Shown here piece by piece: positions 1 to 51,750 of a DNA stretch of 52,827 bases; the stretch's first letter is position 1, and the number at the start of each line of letters is the position of its first letter. The stretch is from Thermoproteales archaeon. Lineage in GTDB: Archaea > Thermoproteota > Thermoprotei > Thermofilales > B69-G16. Under the pieces are notes generated by a model. It saw nothing but the letters and a program-made list of their open reading frames with translations. It was not told the origin of the DNA and ran no database searches. The DNA is taken from contig JAGGZW010000095.1 of the NCBI GenBank assembly GCA_021161825.1, positions 1-52,827 of the forward strand, written 5' to 3'. Position numbers and translations under genes: made by a program.

Positions 1-315
<315 letters not shown>

Positions 316-10434: not shown

Positions 10435-10458
10435 CTATTAAGATATGAAGTGACGGGT

Positions 10459-10992
10459 ATGGCCGAGGAAAAGATAGTCAAGGCGTATATTCTAGGAAAT
10501 GGTAAAATTCGCGTGTTTGACCCTCACGATATTACGCTGCTGCAGGAGAAAGGCGGATATGGAACATTAATGGAAGATAAATCGCTTGAACTATTTCCTG
10601 AGGAAACACTATATTTAGTTGAAAAAAATAGATTAAAAGTTCTAGATGAAAAAGGTAGTGAATTATCATACTCTGATCTTCTCAAATGCTTTTCGAGCAA
10701 CGATGATAAATTTTGGTTAAAATACATCCTTTATTACGACCTAAGAAAGCGGGGATTTATAGTGAAGGAAGGATTTAAAGAAGAAAATATAGAATACAGA
10801 GTAAAAAAGGTGACTGAAAATATCAAATTAACTAAGTATATGGTAATTGGCGTGCAGGAAGGTGTACGGATAGCCTTTATGGAACTTGAGGATATTGTGA
10901 AACGAGCCTTACGAGCCAAAAAGGTGCCTATAATAGCTGTTATCGATAAAGAGGGGAACGTATCCTATTACTCTATCTCTCCACTGGATTAA
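10459..10992 (+). CDS. endA: tRNA-splicing endonuclease, structural (non-catalytic) subunit
   Basis: 177 aa from the preferred ATG (a GTG at 10450 is also in frame). Family features: GGYGTLMEDKSLELFPEETLYLVE in the N-terminal domain, then YYDLRKRGFIVKEGFK and EYRV before the nuclease core, with a final VPIIAVIDKEGNVSYYS strand. In active subunits the segment after this reads RVY...HS.YLV and supplies the catalytic Tyr and His. Here it is RVK...LTKYMV, so both are replaced (Lys116, Leu124). This fits the beta subunit of the heterotetrameric crenarchaeal enzyme, which pairs with a separate catalytic alpha subunit (not in this window). That enzyme type has relaxed substrate rules, matching the odd tRNA introns here. 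Confidence 0.85.
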   Translation: MAEEKIVKAYILGNGKIRVFDPHDITLLQEKGGYGTLMEDKSLELFPEETLYLVEKNRLKVLDEKGSELSYSDLLKCFSSNDDKFWLKYILYYDLRKRGFIVKEGFKEENIEYRVKKVTENIKLTKYMVIGVQEGVRIAFMELEDIVKRALRAKKVPIIAVIDKEGNVSYYSISPLD

Positions 10993-19690: not shown

Positions 19691-19791
19691 GGGCCCGTCG
19701 TCTAGAGGTTAGGATATCGCCCTTACGAGGCGGGGGAATAGCCTTGCAATAAGGCTATACCGACTCCCGGGTTCAAATCCCGGCGGGCCCA
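19691..19791 (+). tRNA. tRNA-Val(TAC) with a 28-nt non-canonical intron
   Basis: Acceptor arms GGGCCCG and CGGGCCC, anticodon arm TCGCC-CTTACGA-GGCGG (anticodon TAC at 19724-19726), T arm CCGGG-TTCAAAT-CCCGG and discriminator A. The full gene is 101 nt while the cloverleaf accounts for 73, so 28 nt are extra. They lie between the anticodon stem and the T stem, where a class I tRNA has a 5-nt variable loop, and fold into an 8-bp hairpin (ATAGCCTT/AAGGCTAT). No 3' CCA is encoded. A long variable arm (Leu/Ser/Tyr type) is the alternative, but the anticodon is valine. Confidence 0.88.
19734..19761 (+). other. Intron of tRNA-Val, in the variable-loop region
   Basis: Placed so that the spliced tRNA keeps stem GGCGG, a 5-nt variable loop GACTC and the T stem. 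The interior ATAGCCTT-GCAAT-AAGGCTAT forms a strong hairpin. The exact splice points are ambiguous by a few nt because flanking bases are G or C runs. Confidence 0.6.
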
Positions 19792-32391: not shown

Positions 32392-32649
32392 TCACCCTGG
32401 CATAACTATCCTAAAAGTGGCTACCTTACCTGCGGTGGGGCTCTCTCTAACTACCATAATAATATCTCCTGGTTTTGCTCCCAAGCTCCTAGCAACAGGA
32501 TCCGAGGCAAGAATCCAAGGTAGTTGACTAGGCGAAATCTTGAATTTTTCTAAAATAGCCATTGCTTCCTTTTTGTCAAGCAGTACATGCTGAGGAATCC
32601 ATGCATGTTTCAGAATATCCATTTTTTTCAATCTTATACCATCCCCCAC
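32392..32649 (-). CDS. rpoH: DNA-directed RNA polymerase subunit H (Rpo5)
   Basis: 85 aa. The RPB5 C-terminal core is visible: HAWIPQHVLLDKKEA, LPWILASDPVARSLGAKPGD and VVRESPTAGKVATFRIV. First gene of the RNA polymerase operon. An in-frame Met10 (MDILKHAWIPQH) is a possible alternative start. Confidence 0.97.
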   Translation of the reverse strand: MGDGIRLKKMDILKHAWIPQHVLLDKKEAMAILEKFKISPSQLPWILASDPVARSLGAKPGDIIMVVRESPTAGKVATFRIVMPG

Positions 32650-32985: not shown

Positions 32986-33098
32986 GCCGGGGTAGCTCAG
33001 CTGGGAGTACGTCTAGTTGAAGTTTTCAAAATCAGACAATCCCCAAAAGCGTCCGGCTGAAGACCGGAAGGTCGAGGGTTCAAATCCCTCCCCCGGCA
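32986..33098 (+). tRNA. tRNA-Phe(GAA) with a 40-nt intron in the D stem
   Basis: Acceptor arms GCCGGGG and CCCCGGC, anticodon arm TCCGG-CTGAAGA-CCGGA (anticodon GAA at 33059-33061), T arm GAGGG-TTCAAAT-CCCTC, discriminator A, no encoded CCA. The gene is 113 nt. Removing 33008-33047 gives a perfect 73-nt cloverleaf with D stem GCTC/GAGC; without removal the D stem cannot form. The intron thus sits at about position 22/23, not at 37/38. Confidence 0.93.
33008..33047 (+). other. Intron of tRNA-Phe (relaxed bulge-helix-bulge)
   Basis: Exon GGGA (33003-33006) can pair with intron TCCC (33040-33043) to form the 4-bp central helix, with short bulges (GTA on one side, CAAA on the other), and intron GTCT/AGAC form an inner helix. 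This is the layout expected for an archaeal splicing endonuclease substrate. Boundaries could shift by a nucleotide. Confidence 0.75.
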
Positions 33099-33141: not shown

Positions 33142-34395
33142 ATGTTAAATACTTTCTCACCAGTTTTTAATTTAAGAGTAGATATGTCGTTGTTTGAGAT
33201 TTGGCGTGAAGGTTCACCCATATTCATTGACGAGAGTAAACTCTCATTTGAATATGTCCCGAAAAAATTACCGCATAGAAAATCTCAGCTTAAAAGTTTG
33301 GGACATTACTTTAAAGCCTTTGTTGTAAATCCTGGTTCAGCGACAATTAAAGCTGTCTTACTTGGCCCTATTGGTACAGGTAAAACTGTAGTTGCCAAAT
33401 ATTTCGGTCAGCAGGTTGAAAACTTTTCTAAACAGCATGGTTTTTCTATTAGATACGTTCACGTGAACTGTCATAAAGATAGGACTCTCTTTCTGATTAT
33501 GCATAGAGTTGCTAGACGGCTTGAAATTCAAGTTCCAAGAAGAGGGTTTTCGTCTCAAGAGTTGATTTATCTTATTTGGAATTATCTCCAAACTTCTGAG
33601 AAGTACCTCTTGCTAGCTATCGACGAAGCAGATTATTTAGTAATTAGCGAGGATAAAGATATCCTGTATGACTTAACTAGAATATCCGAAGATGTTTACA
33701 AAGAGCAGCACAGGATAAGCCTGATTTTTATATTTCGAGATTTGGCTAACCTAGCAATGATAGATAGTAGCATTAGAAGTGCTTTAGCTCATAACATTGT
33801 AGAGTTCAAACCTTATACAGCTAAACAGATCTATGACATTTTATGGTCGCGCATCGTAGATGAGAGAGCTATACGACCTGAAGCTGTTCAAGAGGAAACT
33901 CTGGAGTTGATTAGTGAATTAGTAGGGTATGATAAAGGTGGCCCTGGAGATGCGCGTCTAGCTATCGAGCTTCTTTGGAGAGCGGGAAAGCTTGCAGAAC
34001 GTTCACAGGCTAGGAGTATAACAAGTGAACACGTACAAACTGCATACAATACAGTTTTCCCCTCTTTGTCTAAAGATATTTTGGAAAACCTGCGCAAACA
34101 TGAGCTGTTATTCCTTTACGCGCTTACTAGAACCCTGCTACTCAAGGGGAGTATCAAGGTTCCTTTAGGAATTGTTGAGAAGGAGTATGAAAGTGTGTGC
34201 TTAGACTTAAATGAAAATCCTAGAAAACATACTATGATTTGGGAATATGTGCGTACTTTACGTTCACTAGGAATAATATCTACCGAAATTTCAAAGAAAG
34301 GTTATAGAGGAAAAACTACGCTCCTAAGTATTCCACGTGTTCCAACTAAAGTCTTGAAAGAAGAAATCGAAAAAATACTTGAAAAAATGTACTAA
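33142..34395 (+). CDS. orc1: Orc1/Cdc6 replication initiator
   Basis: 417 aa. Preceded by the family motif LSFEYVPKKLPHRKSQLKSL; AAA+ Walker A GPIGTGKT (75-82), Walker B LLLAIDEADYL, sensor regions, then a C-terminal winged helix (LLFLYALTRTLLLKG..., TMIWEYVRTLRSLGIIS). It binds origin DNA and loads MCM. Start at 33142; Met15 (33184) is an alternative. Convergent with rfcL, overlapping by 4 nt. Confidence 0.95.
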   Translation: MLNTFSPVFNLRVDMSLFEIWREGSPIFIDESKLSFEYVPKKLPHRKSQLKSLGHYFKAFVVNPGSATIKAVLLGPIGTGKTVVAKYFGQQVENFSKQHGFSIRYVHVNCHKDRTLFLIMHRVARRLEIQVPRRGFSSQELIYLIWNYLQTSEKYLLLAIDEADYLVISEDKDILYDLTRISEDVYKEQHRISLIFIFRDLANLAMIDSSIRSALAHNIVEFKPYTAKQIYDILWSRIVDERAIRPEAVQEETLELISELVGYDKGGPGDARLAIELLWRAGKLAERSQARSITSEHVQTAYNTVFPSLSKDILENLRKHELLFLYALTRTLLLKGSIKVPLGIVEKEYESVCLDLNENPRKHTMIWEYVRTLRSLGIISTEISKKGYRGKTTLLSIPRVPTKVLKEEIEKILEKMY

Positions 34396-46406: not shown

Positions 46407-46673
46407 TTAACCTCCATTAGTTATTTGCCCCAATGTAGCATTATATAAAGCATCCAAATCATCGCCCAATATTTCTATCAAAAACTTATCTAGAGCACCT
46501 TCTGAGCTTTGATATGTTACTTTTAGTGTAGCTATAATATTTGACAGCAAAGACAGCAATATTATCATAGCTATAAGGCTTAAACCCAGCAGTAGTCCCT
46601 CTTCAACAAGCTGACTACCCTTATTATTTCTTAGTTTTCTCTCTAGCATTAATCGTCGCACTAACTCACTCAT
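46407..46673 (-). CDS. Type IV prepilin-like protein (class III signal)
   Basis: 88 aa from the preferred Met8 ATG (the frame opens at GTG 46694, overlapping the previous stop). The N-terminus has a basic leader ending RNNKG, then SQLVEEGLLLGLSLIAMIILL. Cleavage after Gly26 (numbering from the GTG start) would leave Glu at mature position 5, the hallmark of type IV pilins, followed by an uninterrupted hydrophobic stretch. The short mature domain (about 70 aa) resembles Flp/Tad-size pilins. Last and most pilin-like gene of the operon; a candidate major subunit. Confidence 0.7.
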   Translation of the reverse strand: MSELVRRLMLERKLRNNKGSQLVEEGLLLGLSLIAMIILLSLLSNIIATLKVTYQSSEGALDKFLIEILGDDLDALYNATLGQITNGG

Positions 46674-46690
46674 GTAATGAAAAATTGCTA

Positions 46691-47587
46691 TCACCAGCTT
46701 ATATGTGCATTAAAATATTTAAGATACCCTTCCTCCGTACAGTTCGAATAGGTAATATAGAAATTTAGAGTAGGAAATAACAAATAATGGATTTTTGCTA
46801 AATTCTCTTTAGCGTATAGATCAATTATTTTCAAGTTAAGCAGACACTTTAGCATCTCCCCTTTGCGCTCACAAGATACCGTATATTCTATTTTAACATT
46901 ATATTTTTTATAGATACAGATAATACTTTCCAAAAAGTTTTGCAACGTTGTACTGCAATTTAAGTTAAAACTTTTTCCATCAAGCCTGCTCGCTATTTCT
47001 TTGCCTATGCTGTAAATTTTGAAATAACATAAAGGTATGCATACAACTAAAGAGCTATTTCTTTGATAGCTTATTTCATGATTATTGTTGTCGTACTTGT
47101 ATTTTACACTGGCAAGACAGCAAACGGAACAGGACCTTGCAACATCATTTTTTATACTGTCCAATAGGAGAAAAATGTCGATTCTATTAAAATTCACATA
47201 CCTATACTCAGTTACTATTAATTTAGAGCAAAGTATTCTGATAGTTTCATTATCAGTTAACAAATATCTCCTTACAACTTGATCGTTTAAAATAATATCT
47301 AGTAGTTCAAAATATCGCTTATTCAGAATTTTTTCAATTTTGTTTTTAGGTAGTGCATTCGTAGCAGCAGTACTCATAACATCTGTAAAGACTTCGCTTA
47401 TCGCATTTCTTATAATATATTCTATATTTTTACATTTTCTATCTACGATCTTCAACAGCAAAACTTTTTCTTCCGTTTCGATATAAAATGATAATATCTC
47501 CAAATAAGCATATATCAGTGACACTATCAAAATGCTTATCAGTAGAACAGACACTGAGACAATAAATGCATTTTTATTCATGACCAT
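46691..47587 (-). CDS. Secreted or pilus-associated protein, Cys-rich
   Basis: 298 aa. After MVMNKNAF comes one N-terminal hydrophobic helix (about 8-33), then a large presumably extracytoplasmic domain with about 12 cysteines, including SCSVCC and VCIPLCYF, which could form disulfides. No other membrane segment. I do not recognise the domain. The short leader resembles minor pilins without a clear prepilin peptidase site. It overlaps the previous gene by 14 nt and the next gene's GTG by 4 nt. Candidate minor pilin or tip adhesin. Confidence 0.6.
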   Translation of the reverse strand: MVMNKNAFIVSVSVLLISILIVSLIYAYLEILSFYIETEEKVLLLKIVDRKCKNIEYIIRNAISEVFTDVMSTAATNALPKNKIEKILNKRYFELLDIILNDQVVRRYLLTDNETIRILCSKLIVTEYRYVNFNRIDIFLLLDSIKNDVARSCSVCCLASVKYKYDNNNHEISYQRNSSLVVCIPLCYFKIYSIGKEIASRLDGKSFNLNCSTTLQNFLESIICIYKKYNVKIEYTVSCERKGEMLKCLLNLKIIDLYAKENLAKIHYLLFPTLNFYITYSNCTEEGYLKYFNAHISW

Positions 47588-47924
47588 ACACCACGCTTAC
47601 CTTGACTATTTTTATTTTCCCATCATCAAACAAAAGCAAGTAGTTTTCGTAAACAAAACTTAATTCCTCTTCATTAACTGTTAGGAATTTGCAGGTTACT
47701 GCTTCAGAAGTATTCCATACACAGTCAAAATTTTCTAAGCGCATCTTATTCTCGAAAGTCTTTTGCAATAACTCTTTCATAACAGTCTCGCTTAATAATT
47801 CACGTTTCAGCAAGTCTTCGATAGCCATAAGCTGTCTAGTTTTTACTTCTGAATAAAATATAACAAGCAGTAAAGAAAAAGAACAAAACATCGCAAAAAC
47901 CATATCTACTAAATAAGCTCTCAT
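47574..47924 (-). CDS. Small N-terminally anchored protein (minor pilin-like)
   Basis: 116 aa with a hydrophobic N-terminus from residue 4 (YLVDMVFAMFCSFSLLLVIF), then an acidic, partly beta domain. This is the pattern of archaeal minor pilins that have only a very short leader. ATGA overlap with the previous gene indicates translational coupling. No domain recognised. Confidence 0.6.
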   Translation of the reverse strand: MRAYLVDMVFAMFCSFSLLLVIFYSEVKTRQLMAIEDLLKRELLSETVMKELLQKTFENKMRLENFDCVWNTSEAVTCKFLTVNEEELSFVYENYLLLFDDGKIKIVKVSVVYGHE

Positions 47925-48106
47925 GGCTTACTCACTAAAATTCTTTCAATGACTCGACTTATCATAACATTAGTTAAATTCCATGCAGTAATAATTAGCA
48001 CGGAAAGTATCATGAACAATATCAATATGATAGCAATTGCTATCGTAGATCCCCTGTTAGTTCTTCGGCATAATATTGACAATTCCACTTCTTTTCTCGA
48101 TGACAT
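47921..48106 (-). CDS. Small pilin-like protein with RG-type leader
   Basis: About 61 aa from the Met at 48106 (an earlier in-frame start at 48157 would overlap the previous gene by 101 nt). A basic leader ends CRRTNRG, then STIAIAIILILFMILSVLII, a typical prepilin peptidase site followed by a hydrophobic helix, but without Glu5. Almost no soluble domain follows. Still overlaps the previous gene by 50 nt. Confidence 0.55.
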   Translation of the reverse strand: MSSRKEVELSILCRRTNRGSTIAIAIILILFMILSVLIITAWNLTNVMISRVIERILVSKP

Positions 48107-48380
48107 ATTCTTCACCCAGTTCAAAGTTGCTGGAGCCCCAGCCACAAAAACTTTCAATATTCAAGAAACATTCTTCGATAGAGGGGAGCTTGACGTAAAG
48201 CCTGCCTCCTTCTGGCATTTCTTCAGCTGCATGACAAAGAATATTCTCCAATAGTATTCGCGGATAAACTATTGCCAGTTTTTCAGCTTCATGGCAAAAC
48301 TTAACAGTGATAATCAGCAGAAACATAAATAAAACGGACCATATCACTACTCCAAAATATTCCTCAACAATTTTGCTCAT
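48057..48380 (-). CDS. Small membrane-anchored protein (pilin/TadE-like)
   Basis: 107 aa: short acidic start (MSKIVEEYF), one hydrophobic helix (about 9-27), then a soluble domain with four cysteines and a CGWGSSNFELGEEYV segment. The acidic residues right before the helix and its place in the operon suggest a minor pilin of the TadE/TadG sort, without proof of homology. Confidence 0.55.
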   Translation of the reverse strand: MSKIVEEYFGVVIWSVLFMFLLIITVKFCHEAEKLAIVYPRILLENILCHAAEEMPEGGRLYVKLPSIEECFLNIESFCGWGSSNFELGEEYVIEKRSGIVNIMPKN

Positions 48381-48562
48381 GGAATTTTCACCTGACTTAT
48401 TTTAAGTATCAAAAAAATGAACTCAAGAAGATGTATCACGTATATAGGCAACGTAGCAACTAACACAATATAAGACAAAACTTCAACAACTTGTTCTTCT
48501 ATTATCCTTTTCATGTCATAAATAATGAGCATAGAAACATATAAGGGAAATATACGCACCAT
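48377..48562 (-). CDS. Small membrane protein, 61 aa
   Basis: Two hydrophobic stretches, the second long (VLSYIVLVATLPIYVIHLLEFIFLILK), separated by KRIIEEQVVE. Unrecognised. A later start at Met17 (48514) would leave one membrane helix preceded by an EEQ-type acidic leader. Overlaps the next gene by 4 nt. Confidence 0.5.
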   Translation of the reverse strand: MVRIFPLYVSMLIIYDMKRIIEEQVVEVLSYIVLVATLPIYVIHLLEFIFLILKISQVKIP

Positions 48563-48626
48563 AAATTAAGTTAATAAACTACAAACTCTTATACGTTCGA
48601 ACTAAACTTTTTAAAACTTCAATTTT

Positions 48627-49856
48627 TTAGATCTTCCTCGTCACAAATTCTAGACAAAACATCGTCAAGAAAGCAAATATGATGTTTATTACCATATATT
48701 TCATCATATCACTTTTCCCATAGGAGATGCTGATTTTATATGAAAAGATAATTTGGAAGTATTGGAAAATAACAATAAAGAAAATTATGTCAAATCCCCT
48801 ATTTTCGAATATGGATGCTAAGGATAGTATTATTGACACAACCAATGAAGATATGCATTGTATAATTTTTGACCTGAACTCTAAAATTTTAATTTTGTGA
48901 CAAAAATTCGCTATAAGAGTTCTGCTATTACGAAACATGGTAAAGACTGTCTCAATATTATATTCAACCTCTTCTAGGTCTGCGTTGCTATAAATCATAC
49001 TTAAACCTTTCATAATGTTATTATCCGATTTAAGCCCATGTCTTTTTAAAAATATCCAGTTCGCTGCCTCTTTTTTGGCATAATTCTTTTCCTTCAAGTA
49101 AACTTTAACAAATTCTCGGGTTGCATATTCAAGATTAAATCCTTTTTTTATGTATTTCATTAGCCATGAAAGTAGAGATTCTAAGTGCTTGCTGGTATCT
49201 AGCAACTCTTTGCATAAATCTTTTTCATTCATATTTTTTGTCCAAAAGTAATACGTAATAAACATTGAGGAAACTATAACTGCCAAAATTTTACCGATAA
49301 ACATGCCCTGATAAAGCAAAGCAAGACAGAATCCGCTTATTACCGAAAGTAATAGACCCGGAATTGCAATATTTACTTCTAAGACATTATAGCGAAAAGA
49401 TGGTATAAAATTGTATAGGATCATTAAGGATATAGCCATAAAGAGAGAGCCTTCAAAAAAATTTATCATATTGAAGAAAACCGCCAAAGCGATTATGGTT
49501 GGAATAAACGATTTTATTCCAATAATTATTGTTAGCTTATCCTCAAGTTTCGCTATATTGCTTTCTAGTGTGATCTTGAACTTATTAAATAATCTTAAAG
49601 GAATTTTCTTGATTTCTCCTAGCGGAAACTCTAAGGATTCCAGAAGTAAAACTATTTTTCGATCATCTACAACATTATTCGTTCTTAACGTCTTTCTCTG
49701 ATGTCTGAGAGAAAAACTTAGTTTCAGTAAATCTTCCTTCCATAATTCCATCGCCAAATCTCTTATGGCGCGGCTTGCATTACATCCCCTTGACAAATAA
49801 AAAATAACGTAAAGAACGACTTCCTTAATAGACTCTAGAAAACTGAAAATTTTCAT
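48627..49856 (-). CDS. GspF/TadC-like pilus or secretion assembly membrane protein
   Basis: 409 aa with about six to eight hydrophobic segments in two groups (about 110-215 and 330-405), separated by a large cytoplasmic helical section with ELLDTSKHLESLLSWLMKYIKKGFNLEYA. That central region and repeated layout resemble type II secretion F domains of archaeal pilus systems. Overlaps the ATPase gene by 32 nt. Sequence identity to known families looks low, so the call rests on topology plus position beside the ATPase. Confidence 0.65.
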   Translation of the reverse strand: MKIFSFLESIKEVVLYVIFYLSRGCNASRAIRDLAMELWKEDLLKLSFSLRHQRKTLRTNNVVDDRKIVLLLESLEFPLGEIKKIPLRLFNKFKITLESNIAKLEDKLTIIIGIKSFIPTIIALAVFFNMINFFEGSLFMAISLMILYNFIPSFRYNVLEVNIAIPGLLLSVISGFCLALLYQGMFIGKILAVIVSSMFITYYFWTKNMNEKDLCKELLDTSKHLESLLSWLMKYIKKGFNLEYATREFVKVYLKEKNYAKKEAANWIFLKRHGLKSDNNIMKGLSMIYSNADLEEVEYNIETVFTMFRNSRTLIANFCHKIKILEFRSKIIQCISSLVVSIILSLASIFENRGFDIIFFIVIFQYFQIIFSYKISISYGKSDMMKYMVINIIFAFLTMFCLEFVTRKI

Positions 49857-51750
49857 TTATTAATTCCCCTATTTTCCTTAAAATTAGTTTGTGTGATTTA
49901 ATGTGATCATCAGCACTATATGCTTTAAATATCTCTTTTACCTTTTCTATTAAGAGAATTATCTTGTGCATCGGAATCTTGTTTTCCAGAGATAGTTTAT
50001 TAATTGTTGTTGATTTTTCGAGGGGGGTAACGCGTTTTAGGATATCATCCTTGTTTCTCGCATACGCAAGAGAAAACATAGTTAGGGGATTGCCGCAACT
50101 TTCAGATTTACTTTTTTCGTAAATGAAAGTTACCTTCTTTTTATCCTTTCTAAGAAGATCCCGTTTCATGAAAACTATAACATCGATACTTGACAATAAC
50201 GTCATAGGGATATCAAATATTTTTACAAATCTTAATACTAACTGCTCTAAATTTAGCGCATGAGTAGTTTGTATACATTTAATTCCTGCATTCATTGCTT
50301 GAAATGCAGCTATTACGTGCTCTCTATGTTGTAGCTCACCCATTATTACATAGTCTGGTTTCCTATGGAGTATTTTAATGGTTTCATCTATCTTGCTTGA
50401 TCTGCTATATTGACTTCTTTCTAATGAGCCTACGCGTAATCTGAGTTGATGGTAGCCTTTATCCAACTGTTTTATGGATTCTACTACATCTTCAATGTAG
50501 ATTTTTCTATATATTTTGGGAAGCATAATATCTATTGCATTGAGGAGTGTAGTTTTACCACTGCCCGGTTCTCCACTTATCAATATATTTAATCTGAAAA
50601 AGGCTGCGATGAAAAGAAAGGCTGCTGCCTCGGCAGACAATGTACCCAATTTTATGAGTTCAGGTATGGTAAATGCTTTTTTCCTATACTTTCTAACATC
50701 TATTGAAATGCCGTCAATTGCAACTGGAGGAGCATCAATAGATACTCTAACCTTGAACATCTTTGTTATATAATCAGTCTTTAGAGATGGTGAGGAAAAG
50801 GAAATAAAATTTCCTGTATCCATTTTTATATGTGTTAGAAAGACCTCTAATTCCTTTTTTGATAAAGCTATATTAGATCTACATCTTCCATAGATTTCAT
50901 GGTCAAGATATATGTTGGTGTTAGGAGCATCTTGGTAGAACTCTTGAACTCTATCGTCAAGCAAAAAAGGCATTATTCGGGTAACCTTCAGAGAACAAAA
51001 AGTCGAAAGATAAGCCAATTTTTTGATTTTTTCTGTAGAGAGCAGTGATAGAACATCAGGACAAAAATTCTCGGCCAAATAACGGAAGATTTCTAACCTA
51101 TGGTCAACTATTTCATCAAATTCTGAAACCGCAACTTCCTTTAGATAACGTCTCCTATCGTACTCGATCATAATATCACCTAGGCTTTTATAGCAAAAAA
51201 TCACGTCAACCAGATCTGTGAAAGGCTTCACGTAATATCTGTCTTCGTAGTCCGGCGATTCTGTTATTTTTATATTATAGCAATAAACATTGTAATTTCT
51301 CCTTACCTTGCGTCTTTTACCAATATTATCATTCTTAACACTCTCGAAAGCCCGATATTCCATGATCGTCAAGGCTTTTTGAAAAGACAACACTAGCTTC
51401 TGTATATGTTTAGGGAGAGCTTTTAATAAGCTACTTAGCTCAAAATTATTTTCTATCAACTCATTAAGAAAAAAATAGTTTCTATTATCGAAAATGGCTT
51501 CATGTCTCAAATTGTAAATGTATCGCGAGATAGGGATAACATAATTTTTTATTAAATTACTGTTAACTACTAACTTTTCTTTACCGTTTAATAAAAGAAT
51601 TACTCCTGAAATATTATCTGTGAAGGATTTCTTAAGAGAGAATATTCTAACCAGGAAATTATAGACGTTCTCACAGTTTTTATCGTAAATGAAACTTCCA
51701 GCTTTTTTAAAAGCTTCATCTTCTTCTTGTATAAAGATTGTACCAAGCAT
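49825..51750 (-). CDS. Type II/IV secretion system ATPase (GspE/VirB11/TadA-like)
   Basis: 641 aa. A long N-terminal region without clear motifs (about 330 residues), then the secretion ATPase core: Walker A GEPGSGKTT (393-401), Asp box IEDVVES (419-424), Walker B DYVIMGELQH (about 466-475) and His box TTHA (495-498). Most relatives read GE(V/I)RG after Walker B; here the arginine is glutamine. The protein powers assembly of a pilus or secretion filament. Five nt after the TFB gene. Confidence 0.88.
   Translation of the reverse strand: MLGTIFIQEEDEAFKKAGSFIYDKNCENVYNFLVRIFSLKKSFTDNISGVILLLNGKEKLVVNSNLIKNYVIPISRYIYNLRHEAIFDNRNYFFLNELIENNFELSSLLKALPKHIQKLVLSFQKALTIMEYRAFESVKNDNIGKRRKVRRNYNVYCYNIKITESPDYEDRYYVKPFTDLVDVIFCYKSLGDIMIEYDRRRYLKEVAVSEFDEIVDHRLEIFRYLAENFCPDVLSLLSTEKIKKLAYLSTFCSLKVTRIMPFLLDDRVQEFYQDAPNTNIYLDHEIYGRCRSNIALSKKELEVFLTHIKMDTGNFISFSSPSLKTDYITKMFKVRVSIDAPPVAIDGISIDVRKYRKKAFTIPELIKLGTLSAEAAAFLFIAAFFRLNILISGEPGSGKTTLLNAIDIMLPKIYRKIYIEDVVESIKQLDKGYHQLRLRVGSLERSQYSRSSKIDETIKILHRKPDYVIMGELQHREHVIAAFQAMNAGIKCIQTTHALNLEQLVLRFVKIFDIPMTLLSSIDVIVFMKRDLLRKDKKKVTFIYEKSKSESCGNPLTMFSLAYARNKDDILKRVTPLEKSTTINKLSLENKIPMHKIILLIEKVKEIFKAYSADDHIKSHKLILRKIGELINENFQFSRVY

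What the first reader, a model, noticed from the sequence alone, without database searches (positions are those of the whole stretch)
32986..33098. tRNA-Phe intron in the D stem
The 113-nt gene becomes a perfect 73-nt tRNA when 40 nt are removed between positions about 22 and 23. The intron splits the 3' strand of the D stem, and a 4-bp exon-intron helix flanked by short bulges can form. Introns at this position are rare, and GAA is the only Phe anticodon, so correct splicing would be essential.
Basis: seen in the sequence. Interest (0 to 1): 0.6.

Follow-up and report, generated by a model that had tools for sequence, protein, structure and literature searches.

The report
tRNA-Phe gene with D-stem intron
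The only phenylalanine tRNA gene found in this heat-loving archaeon is interrupted by a 40-base intron at position 22/23; the intron is real, but it is of a well-known archaeal kind, removed by the ordinary tRNA-splicing enzyme.

Summary
Window 32986-33098 (+) is a tRNA-Phe(GAA) gene. Removing 33008-33047 (40 nt), and only that segment, gives the best 73-nt cloverleaf in a brute-force search. The spliced sequence is nearly identical to intron-free tRNA-Phe of a same-order genome, and its D-arm-to-anticodon stretch is identical to that of a same-genus genome, which lacks this intron and has a canonical 37/38 one instead. The junction has a 4-bp exon-intron helix (UGGG/CCCA) and a 3-nt 3' bulge (AA|A). 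The 5' bulge (AG|U) opens into a wider internal loop, so this is a relaxed bulge-helix-bulge (BHB). The same geometry recurs at 22/23 in tRNA-Lys and tRNA-Asn of this genus and in tRNA-Phe of unrelated archaea, with exon-intron covariation. No other tRNA-Phe was found in the 96%-complete genome. Position 22/23 is a published non-canonical site, and an A. pernix tRNA-Thr intron 22 nt from the 5' end is known to be spliced. Most likely: an ordinary lineage-specific BHB intron removed by an (alpha-beta)2 endonuclease and re-ligated. The beta-type subunit is in the window; the catalytic alpha subunit was not found in this draft. New member of a known kind; low interest.

The parts
32986..33098 (+). 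tRNA-Phe(GAA) gene with one intron; no CCA encoded
   Evidence: Rfam RF00005 58.5 bits; unique best one-intron model
32986..33007 (+). exon 1, tRNA positions 1-22
   Evidence: matches intron-free relatives
33008..33047 (+). 40-nt intron at position 22/23
   Evidence: absent from tRNA-Phe of same-genus genome G002 (L114)
33048..33098 (+). exon 2, tRNA positions 23-73, with anticodon GAA
33002..33005 (+). 5' strand of central helix (UGGG, exon positions 17-20)
   Evidence: 4/4 pairs
33042..33045 (+). 3' strand of central helix (CCCA, in the intron)
   Evidence: 4/4 pairs
33006..33008 (+). 5' splice-site bulge AG|U (opens into a larger internal loop)
   Evidence: cleavage between bulge residues 2 and 3 as described in PMC4307357
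33046..33048 (+). 3' splice-site bulge AA|A, closed by the outer helix G15-C16/G24-C25
33011..33037 (+). intron hairpin: GUCU/AGAC and UUGAA/UUCAA
   Evidence: folds
10450..10992 (+). tRNA-splicing endonuclease subunit, beta-type: catalytic Tyr and His absent, Lys kept
   Evidence: PF01974 50.9 bits and PF02778 46.1 bits; alignment to M. jannaschii 1a79

Best explanation
This is an ordinary archaeal protein-spliced tRNA intron at non-canonical position 22/23 of the only tRNA-Phe gene found in a Thermofilales archaeon. In the precursor, U17-G20 of the D loop pairs with CCCA near the 3' end of the intron. This exposes AG|U and AA|A at the two junctions; a heterotetrameric (alpha-beta)2 splicing endonuclease cuts after G22 and before A23, and a tRNA ligase joins the exons, so that the D stem (GCUC/GAGC) can form. 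Shown here: the gene, the unique intron boundaries, the helix and its recurrence with covariation, the intron's absence in relatives, and the beta-type subunit in the window. Inferred: transcription, cleavage, ligation, presence of the alpha subunit, and recent gain in this lineage.
For: Unique best one-intron model, after nt 22, 40 nt, GAA. Same-genus G002 tRNA-Phe has the uninterrupted stretch GCTCAGCTGGGAGAGCGTCCGGCTGAAG, identical to the predicted splice product over that stretch, and a separate 37/38 intron (L114). Same-order G021 has an uninterrupted tRNA-Phe, almost identical to the splice product. The same helix register and AG|N, NN|A junctions occur in 22/23 introns of tRNA-Lys (G000, G001) and tRNA-Asn (G001, G002) and in tRNA-Phe of Thermofilaceae, Thermoproteales, Thaumarchaeota and Aenigmarchaeota MAGs. 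They covary: UGGG/CCCA, CGGG/CCCG, UGGA/UCCA, UGGU/GCCA; 10 of 14 have 4/4 pairs against 0.9 expected. Beta-type endonuclease subunit in the window; most of the relatives have two paralogues. The literature lists 22/23 and reports lenient alpha2beta2 enzymes (PMC4090602), and D-arm introns cut in vitro by crenarchaeal EndA (PMC4307357).
Against: The 5' bulge is not closed by an adjacent inner helix. With the other three stems forced, competing folds are predicted more stable than the BHB fold: by 1.2-1.4 kcal/mol at 37-60 C (a fold with three D-stem pairs plus GGGA/UCCC) and by 2.7 kcal/mol at 80 C (a different fold). The catalytic alpha subunit was not found in the assembly. There are no RNA data.
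Confidence: 0.94

Rival explanations
1. The interrupted gene is a decayed pseudogene, and phenylalanine is decoded by another intron-free or differently interrupted tRNA-Phe gene missing from the draft assembly.
For: The assembly is fragmented (132 contigs, 96% complete), and only 35 tRNA matches were found, fewer than a full archaeal set.
Against: All stems and the conserved residues I scored are intact, and the insertion is the only defect. The insertion carries an exon-complementary CCCA in the exact register seen in other 22/23 introns. No other Phe gene turned up.
Confidence: 0.03
2. The insertion is spliced, but at junctions displaced by one or more bases, using the alternative GGGA/UCCC helix instead of UGGG/CCCA.
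For: The alternative helix is predicted slightly more stable in a constrained fold.
Against: Only the 22|23 junction restores the exact D-stem sequence of the relatives, and the UGGG/CCCA register is the one shared with other species.
Confidence: 0.02
3. Assembly or binning artefact: the 40-nt insertion is a misassembly.
For: The genome is a draft of many contigs.
Against: The insertion sits exactly at a known intron position with the matching helix, in the middle of a 52.8-kb contig with normal archaeal genes on both sides.
Confidence: 0.01

Closest known systems
Archaeal non-canonical BHB tRNA introns at position 22/23 (listed in Yoshihisa 2014, PMC4090602)
   Same: Same position; splice sites in bulges beside a 4-bp exon-intron helix; same organismal group (Crenarchaeota in the older sense).
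   Different: Here the host is tRNA-Phe, the intron is longer (40 nt) than the others compared here (12-30 nt), and the 5' bulge is not closed by an inner helix.
Aeropyrum pernix tRNA-Thr(UGU) D-arm intron, 22 bases from the 5' end (PMC4307357)
   Same: Same distance from the 5' end; splicing seen in cDNA, and the precursor tested with A. pernix EndA.
   Different: Different isoacceptor and intron sequence; no RNA evidence for the present gene.
tRNA-Phe with a 22/23 intron in an uncultured Thermofilaceae MAG (L173, CALHPJ010000016.1; same sequence found in G019)
   Same: Same tRNA, same position, same central helix UGGG/CCCA, same first intron base (AG|U).
   Different: 18-nt intron of otherwise different sequence, and a second intron at 37/38.

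Membership tests
Archaeal BHB-type tRNA intron | Removal of one segment restores a full cloverleaf tRNA | tested here: met
   Unique best model: after nt 22, 40 nt; 73-nt product
Archaeal BHB-type tRNA intron | 4-bp central helix between 5' exon and 3' part of intron | tested here: met
   UGGG/CCCA 4/4; 10 of 14 comparable introns 4/4 against 0.9 expected
Archaeal BHB-type tRNA intron | 3-nt bulges at both junctions, closed by flanking helices | tested here: inconclusive
   3' bulge AA|A closed by G15-C16/G24-C25; 5' bulge AG|U opens into a larger loop, no adjacent inner pair (inner = 0). Relaxed hBH-type forms are accepted in the literature
Archaeal BHB-type tRNA intron | tRNA-splicing endonuclease in the organism | tested here: inconclusive
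   Beta-type subunit present in the window; catalytic alpha present in same-genus G002 but not found in this draft
Archaeal BHB-type tRNA intron | Cleavage and ligation at the predicted junctions in RNA | not testable with these tools
   No RNA data available
Non-canonical position 22/23 class | Intron lies between tRNA positions 22 and 23 | tested here: met
   Exon 1 is 22 nt, with an 8-nt D loop and G22 as the first 3'-strand D-stem base
Intron with embedded box C/D RNA (as in euryarchaeal tRNA-Trp introns) | C box RUGAUGA and D box CUGA, or an Rfam match, in the intron | tested here: not met
   Rfam scan of the window gives only tRNA and rRNA hits; neither box in the 40-nt sequence

The most novel reading that the evidence does not exclude
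The precursor is spliced from an unusual alternative conformation in which the D stem is partly formed (GCU/AGC plus GGGA/UCCC) rather than from a standard BHB, which would be a new kind of substrate geometry for the crenarchaeal endonuclease.
Probability: 0.04. Interest if true: 0.4.

Novelty: new member of a known kind. Interest (0 to 1): 0.12.

Why it matters
It adds one clear case of lineage-specific presence of a D-stem intron in what seems to be a single-copy essential tRNA: absent in one sister species, which instead has a 37/38 intron, and present in distant archaea with a covarying exon-intron helix. It mainly illustrates that position 22/23 recurs across archaea, plausibly because the D-loop GG and its neighbours supply one side of the helix. 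It does not change what is known about archaeal tRNA splicing.

Tried and rejected
ARAGORN's second 'tRNA-Phe' (C116:1703-1807) looked like the refuting second copy. It is not Phe: its sequence reads as tRNA-Arg(CCG) with two introns, one in the D arm and one in the anticodon loop, and the Rfam alignment also places both insertions there. Plain minimum-energy folding was uninformative: even the spliced tRNA does not fold into a cloverleaf in the energy model. A search for intron copies elsewhere in the genome found none (best E 0.165), so there is no sign of recent transposition of this intron within the genome. A hidden guide RNA in the intron was rejected (no Rfam match, no C/D boxes). An attempt to explain the missing alpha endonuclease by synteny did not resolve it: psmB, which follows alpha in G002, is present in the window's genome, but alpha is not beside it. 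The primary papers on Thermoproteales introns (10.1093/molbev/msn216 and msq111) are not held, so their tables could not be checked for tRNA-Phe 22/23 specifically.

Full report
What is there. Window 32986-33098 (+) is a tRNA gene found by Rfam's tRNA model at 58.5 bits with a long insertion in the D arm. It lies between a divergently oriented 85-aa ORF (32392-32649, -), which is followed by an rpoB-like gene, and a cdc6-like gene (33142-34395, +; Pfam Cdc6_C). A brute-force search over one-intron placements, with no position preferred, gives a single best solution: 40 nt removed after nucleotide 22, anticodon GAA. The spliced product is GCCGGGGTAGCTCAGCTGGGAGAGCGTCCGGCTGAAGACCGGAAGGTCGAGGGTTCAAATCCCTCCCCCGGCA, 73 nt.

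Independent support for the boundaries. Same-genus genome G002 has a tRNA-Phe (L114) that is uninterrupted in the D arm: its run GCTCAGCTGGGAGAGCGTCCGGCTGAAG is identical to the predicted splice product. It carries a 16-nt intron at 37/38 instead. Same-order genomes G021, G008, G012, G010, G006, G003 and G013 have fully uninterrupted tRNA-Phe genes, that of G021 nearly identical to the splice product. The intron is therefore specific to this lineage within its genus as sampled; gain is more likely than loss, but I did not reconstruct it formally. No tRNA-Phe was identified in the other same-genus genome, G001 (83% complete).

Splice-site structure. U17-G20 pairs with CCCA at 33042-33045. The 3' bulge AA|A is closed by G15-C16/G24-C25. 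The 5' bulge AG|U is followed by an unclosed internal loop and then an intron hairpin. A 4/4 match in that register has a 6% chance with a shuffled intron, so by itself it proves little. The comparison does more: taking D-arm introns in this register from tRNA-Phe, tRNA-Lys and tRNA-Asn in this genus and in other archaea, 10 of 14 have 4/4 pairs against 0.9 expected, with matched changes on both sides (UGGG/CCCA, CGGG/CCCG, UGGA/UCCA, UGGU/GCCA). Some of the 14 are related to each other, so they are not fully independent. Of the four exceptions, L174 has a junction that can also be read two bases away with a full 4-bp helix (my reading of the sequence). Caveat: with the other stems forced, an alternative fold with GGGA/UCCC and three D-stem pairs is predicted slightly more stable at 37 and 60 C; nearest-neighbour energies for such bulges are poor guides.

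How common. A pattern for tRNA-Phe with a D-stem insertion, run over 84,980 species genomes, found 7 MAGs, labelled Thaumarchaeota (3), Aenigmarchaeota, Thermoproteales, Thermofilaceae and one 'bacterium'. In the window's own class, 4 of 81 genomes match, the window's own included. One of them, same-order G019, has the same sequence as the Thermofilaceae record L173, which places the window's genome in Thermofilales or close to it. The window's genome also has a 22/23 intron in tRNA-Lys(UUU) and a D-arm intron in tRNA-Arg(CCG).

Is it the only tRNA-Phe? The covariance-model scan of the whole genome gives 35 tRNA matches. The only other one that ARAGORN labels Phe reads as tRNA-Arg(CCG). A 3'-half pattern and a 5'-half search with 3 mismatches find only this locus. 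Five of the 35 matches, the weakest, were fetched but not individually assigned an anticodon. The assembly is 96% complete, so a second copy is unlikely but not excluded.

Machinery. The window itself encodes a splicing-endonuclease subunit (10450-10992, +; Pfam PF01974 and PF02778). It lacks the catalytic Tyr and His in the alignment to the M. jannaschii enzyme and keeps the Lys (residue roles from general knowledge of that enzyme), so it is the structural beta-type. Most relatives with good assemblies have two paralogues, and G002's other copy has Tyr, His and Lys. No alpha gene was found in the window's genome. Since about twenty of its tRNA genes carry introns, a gap in the draft is the likely reason, but that is inference.

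Comparison with the known. Position 22/23 is on the published list of non-canonical archaeal tRNA intron positions, and alpha2beta2 enzymes are described as lenient towards relaxed motifs (PMC4090602). In A. pernix a tRNA-Thr(UGU) intron 22 bases from the 5' end was confirmed in cDNA, and crenarchaeal EndA enzymes cut D-arm introns in vitro (PMC4307357). tRNAscan-SE 2.0 counted 673 non-canonical introns in 217 archaeal genomes (PMC8450103). The finding is thus a correct observation of a new member of a known kind.

Noticed in passing
10450-10992 (+): The only splicing-endonuclease gene found in the genome is a beta-type subunit without the catalytic Tyr and His. The alpha gene was not found anywhere, although psmB, its neighbour in sister genome G002, is present.
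   Followed up: partly
19691-19791 (+): A second tRNA gene, apparently tRNA-Val(UAC), with an insertion of roughly 27 nt in the variable region next to the anticodon stem.
   Followed up: partly
L023 1501-1605 (-) (G000:C116:1703-1807): tRNA-Arg(CCG) with two introns, one in the D arm and one in the anticodon loop; ARAGORN misreads it as tRNA-Phe.
   Followed up: partly
L030 1501-1590 (G000:C113:11359-11448): tRNA-Lys(UUU) with a 19-nt intron at 22/23, shared with a very similar intron in a tRNA-Lys of same-genus G001 (L142).
   Followed up: yes
L173 (CALHPJ010000016.1): tRNA-Phe of an uncultured Thermofilaceae archaeon carries both a 22/23 and a 37/38 intron.
   Followed up: partly
1-315 (-): 5' part of an archaeal 16S rRNA gene, cut off by the contig end.
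   Followed up: no
46407-51750 (-): A cluster with a type II/IV secretion ATPase (49825-51750) and small proteins without Pfam matches, possibly a pilus-like system.
   Followed up: no
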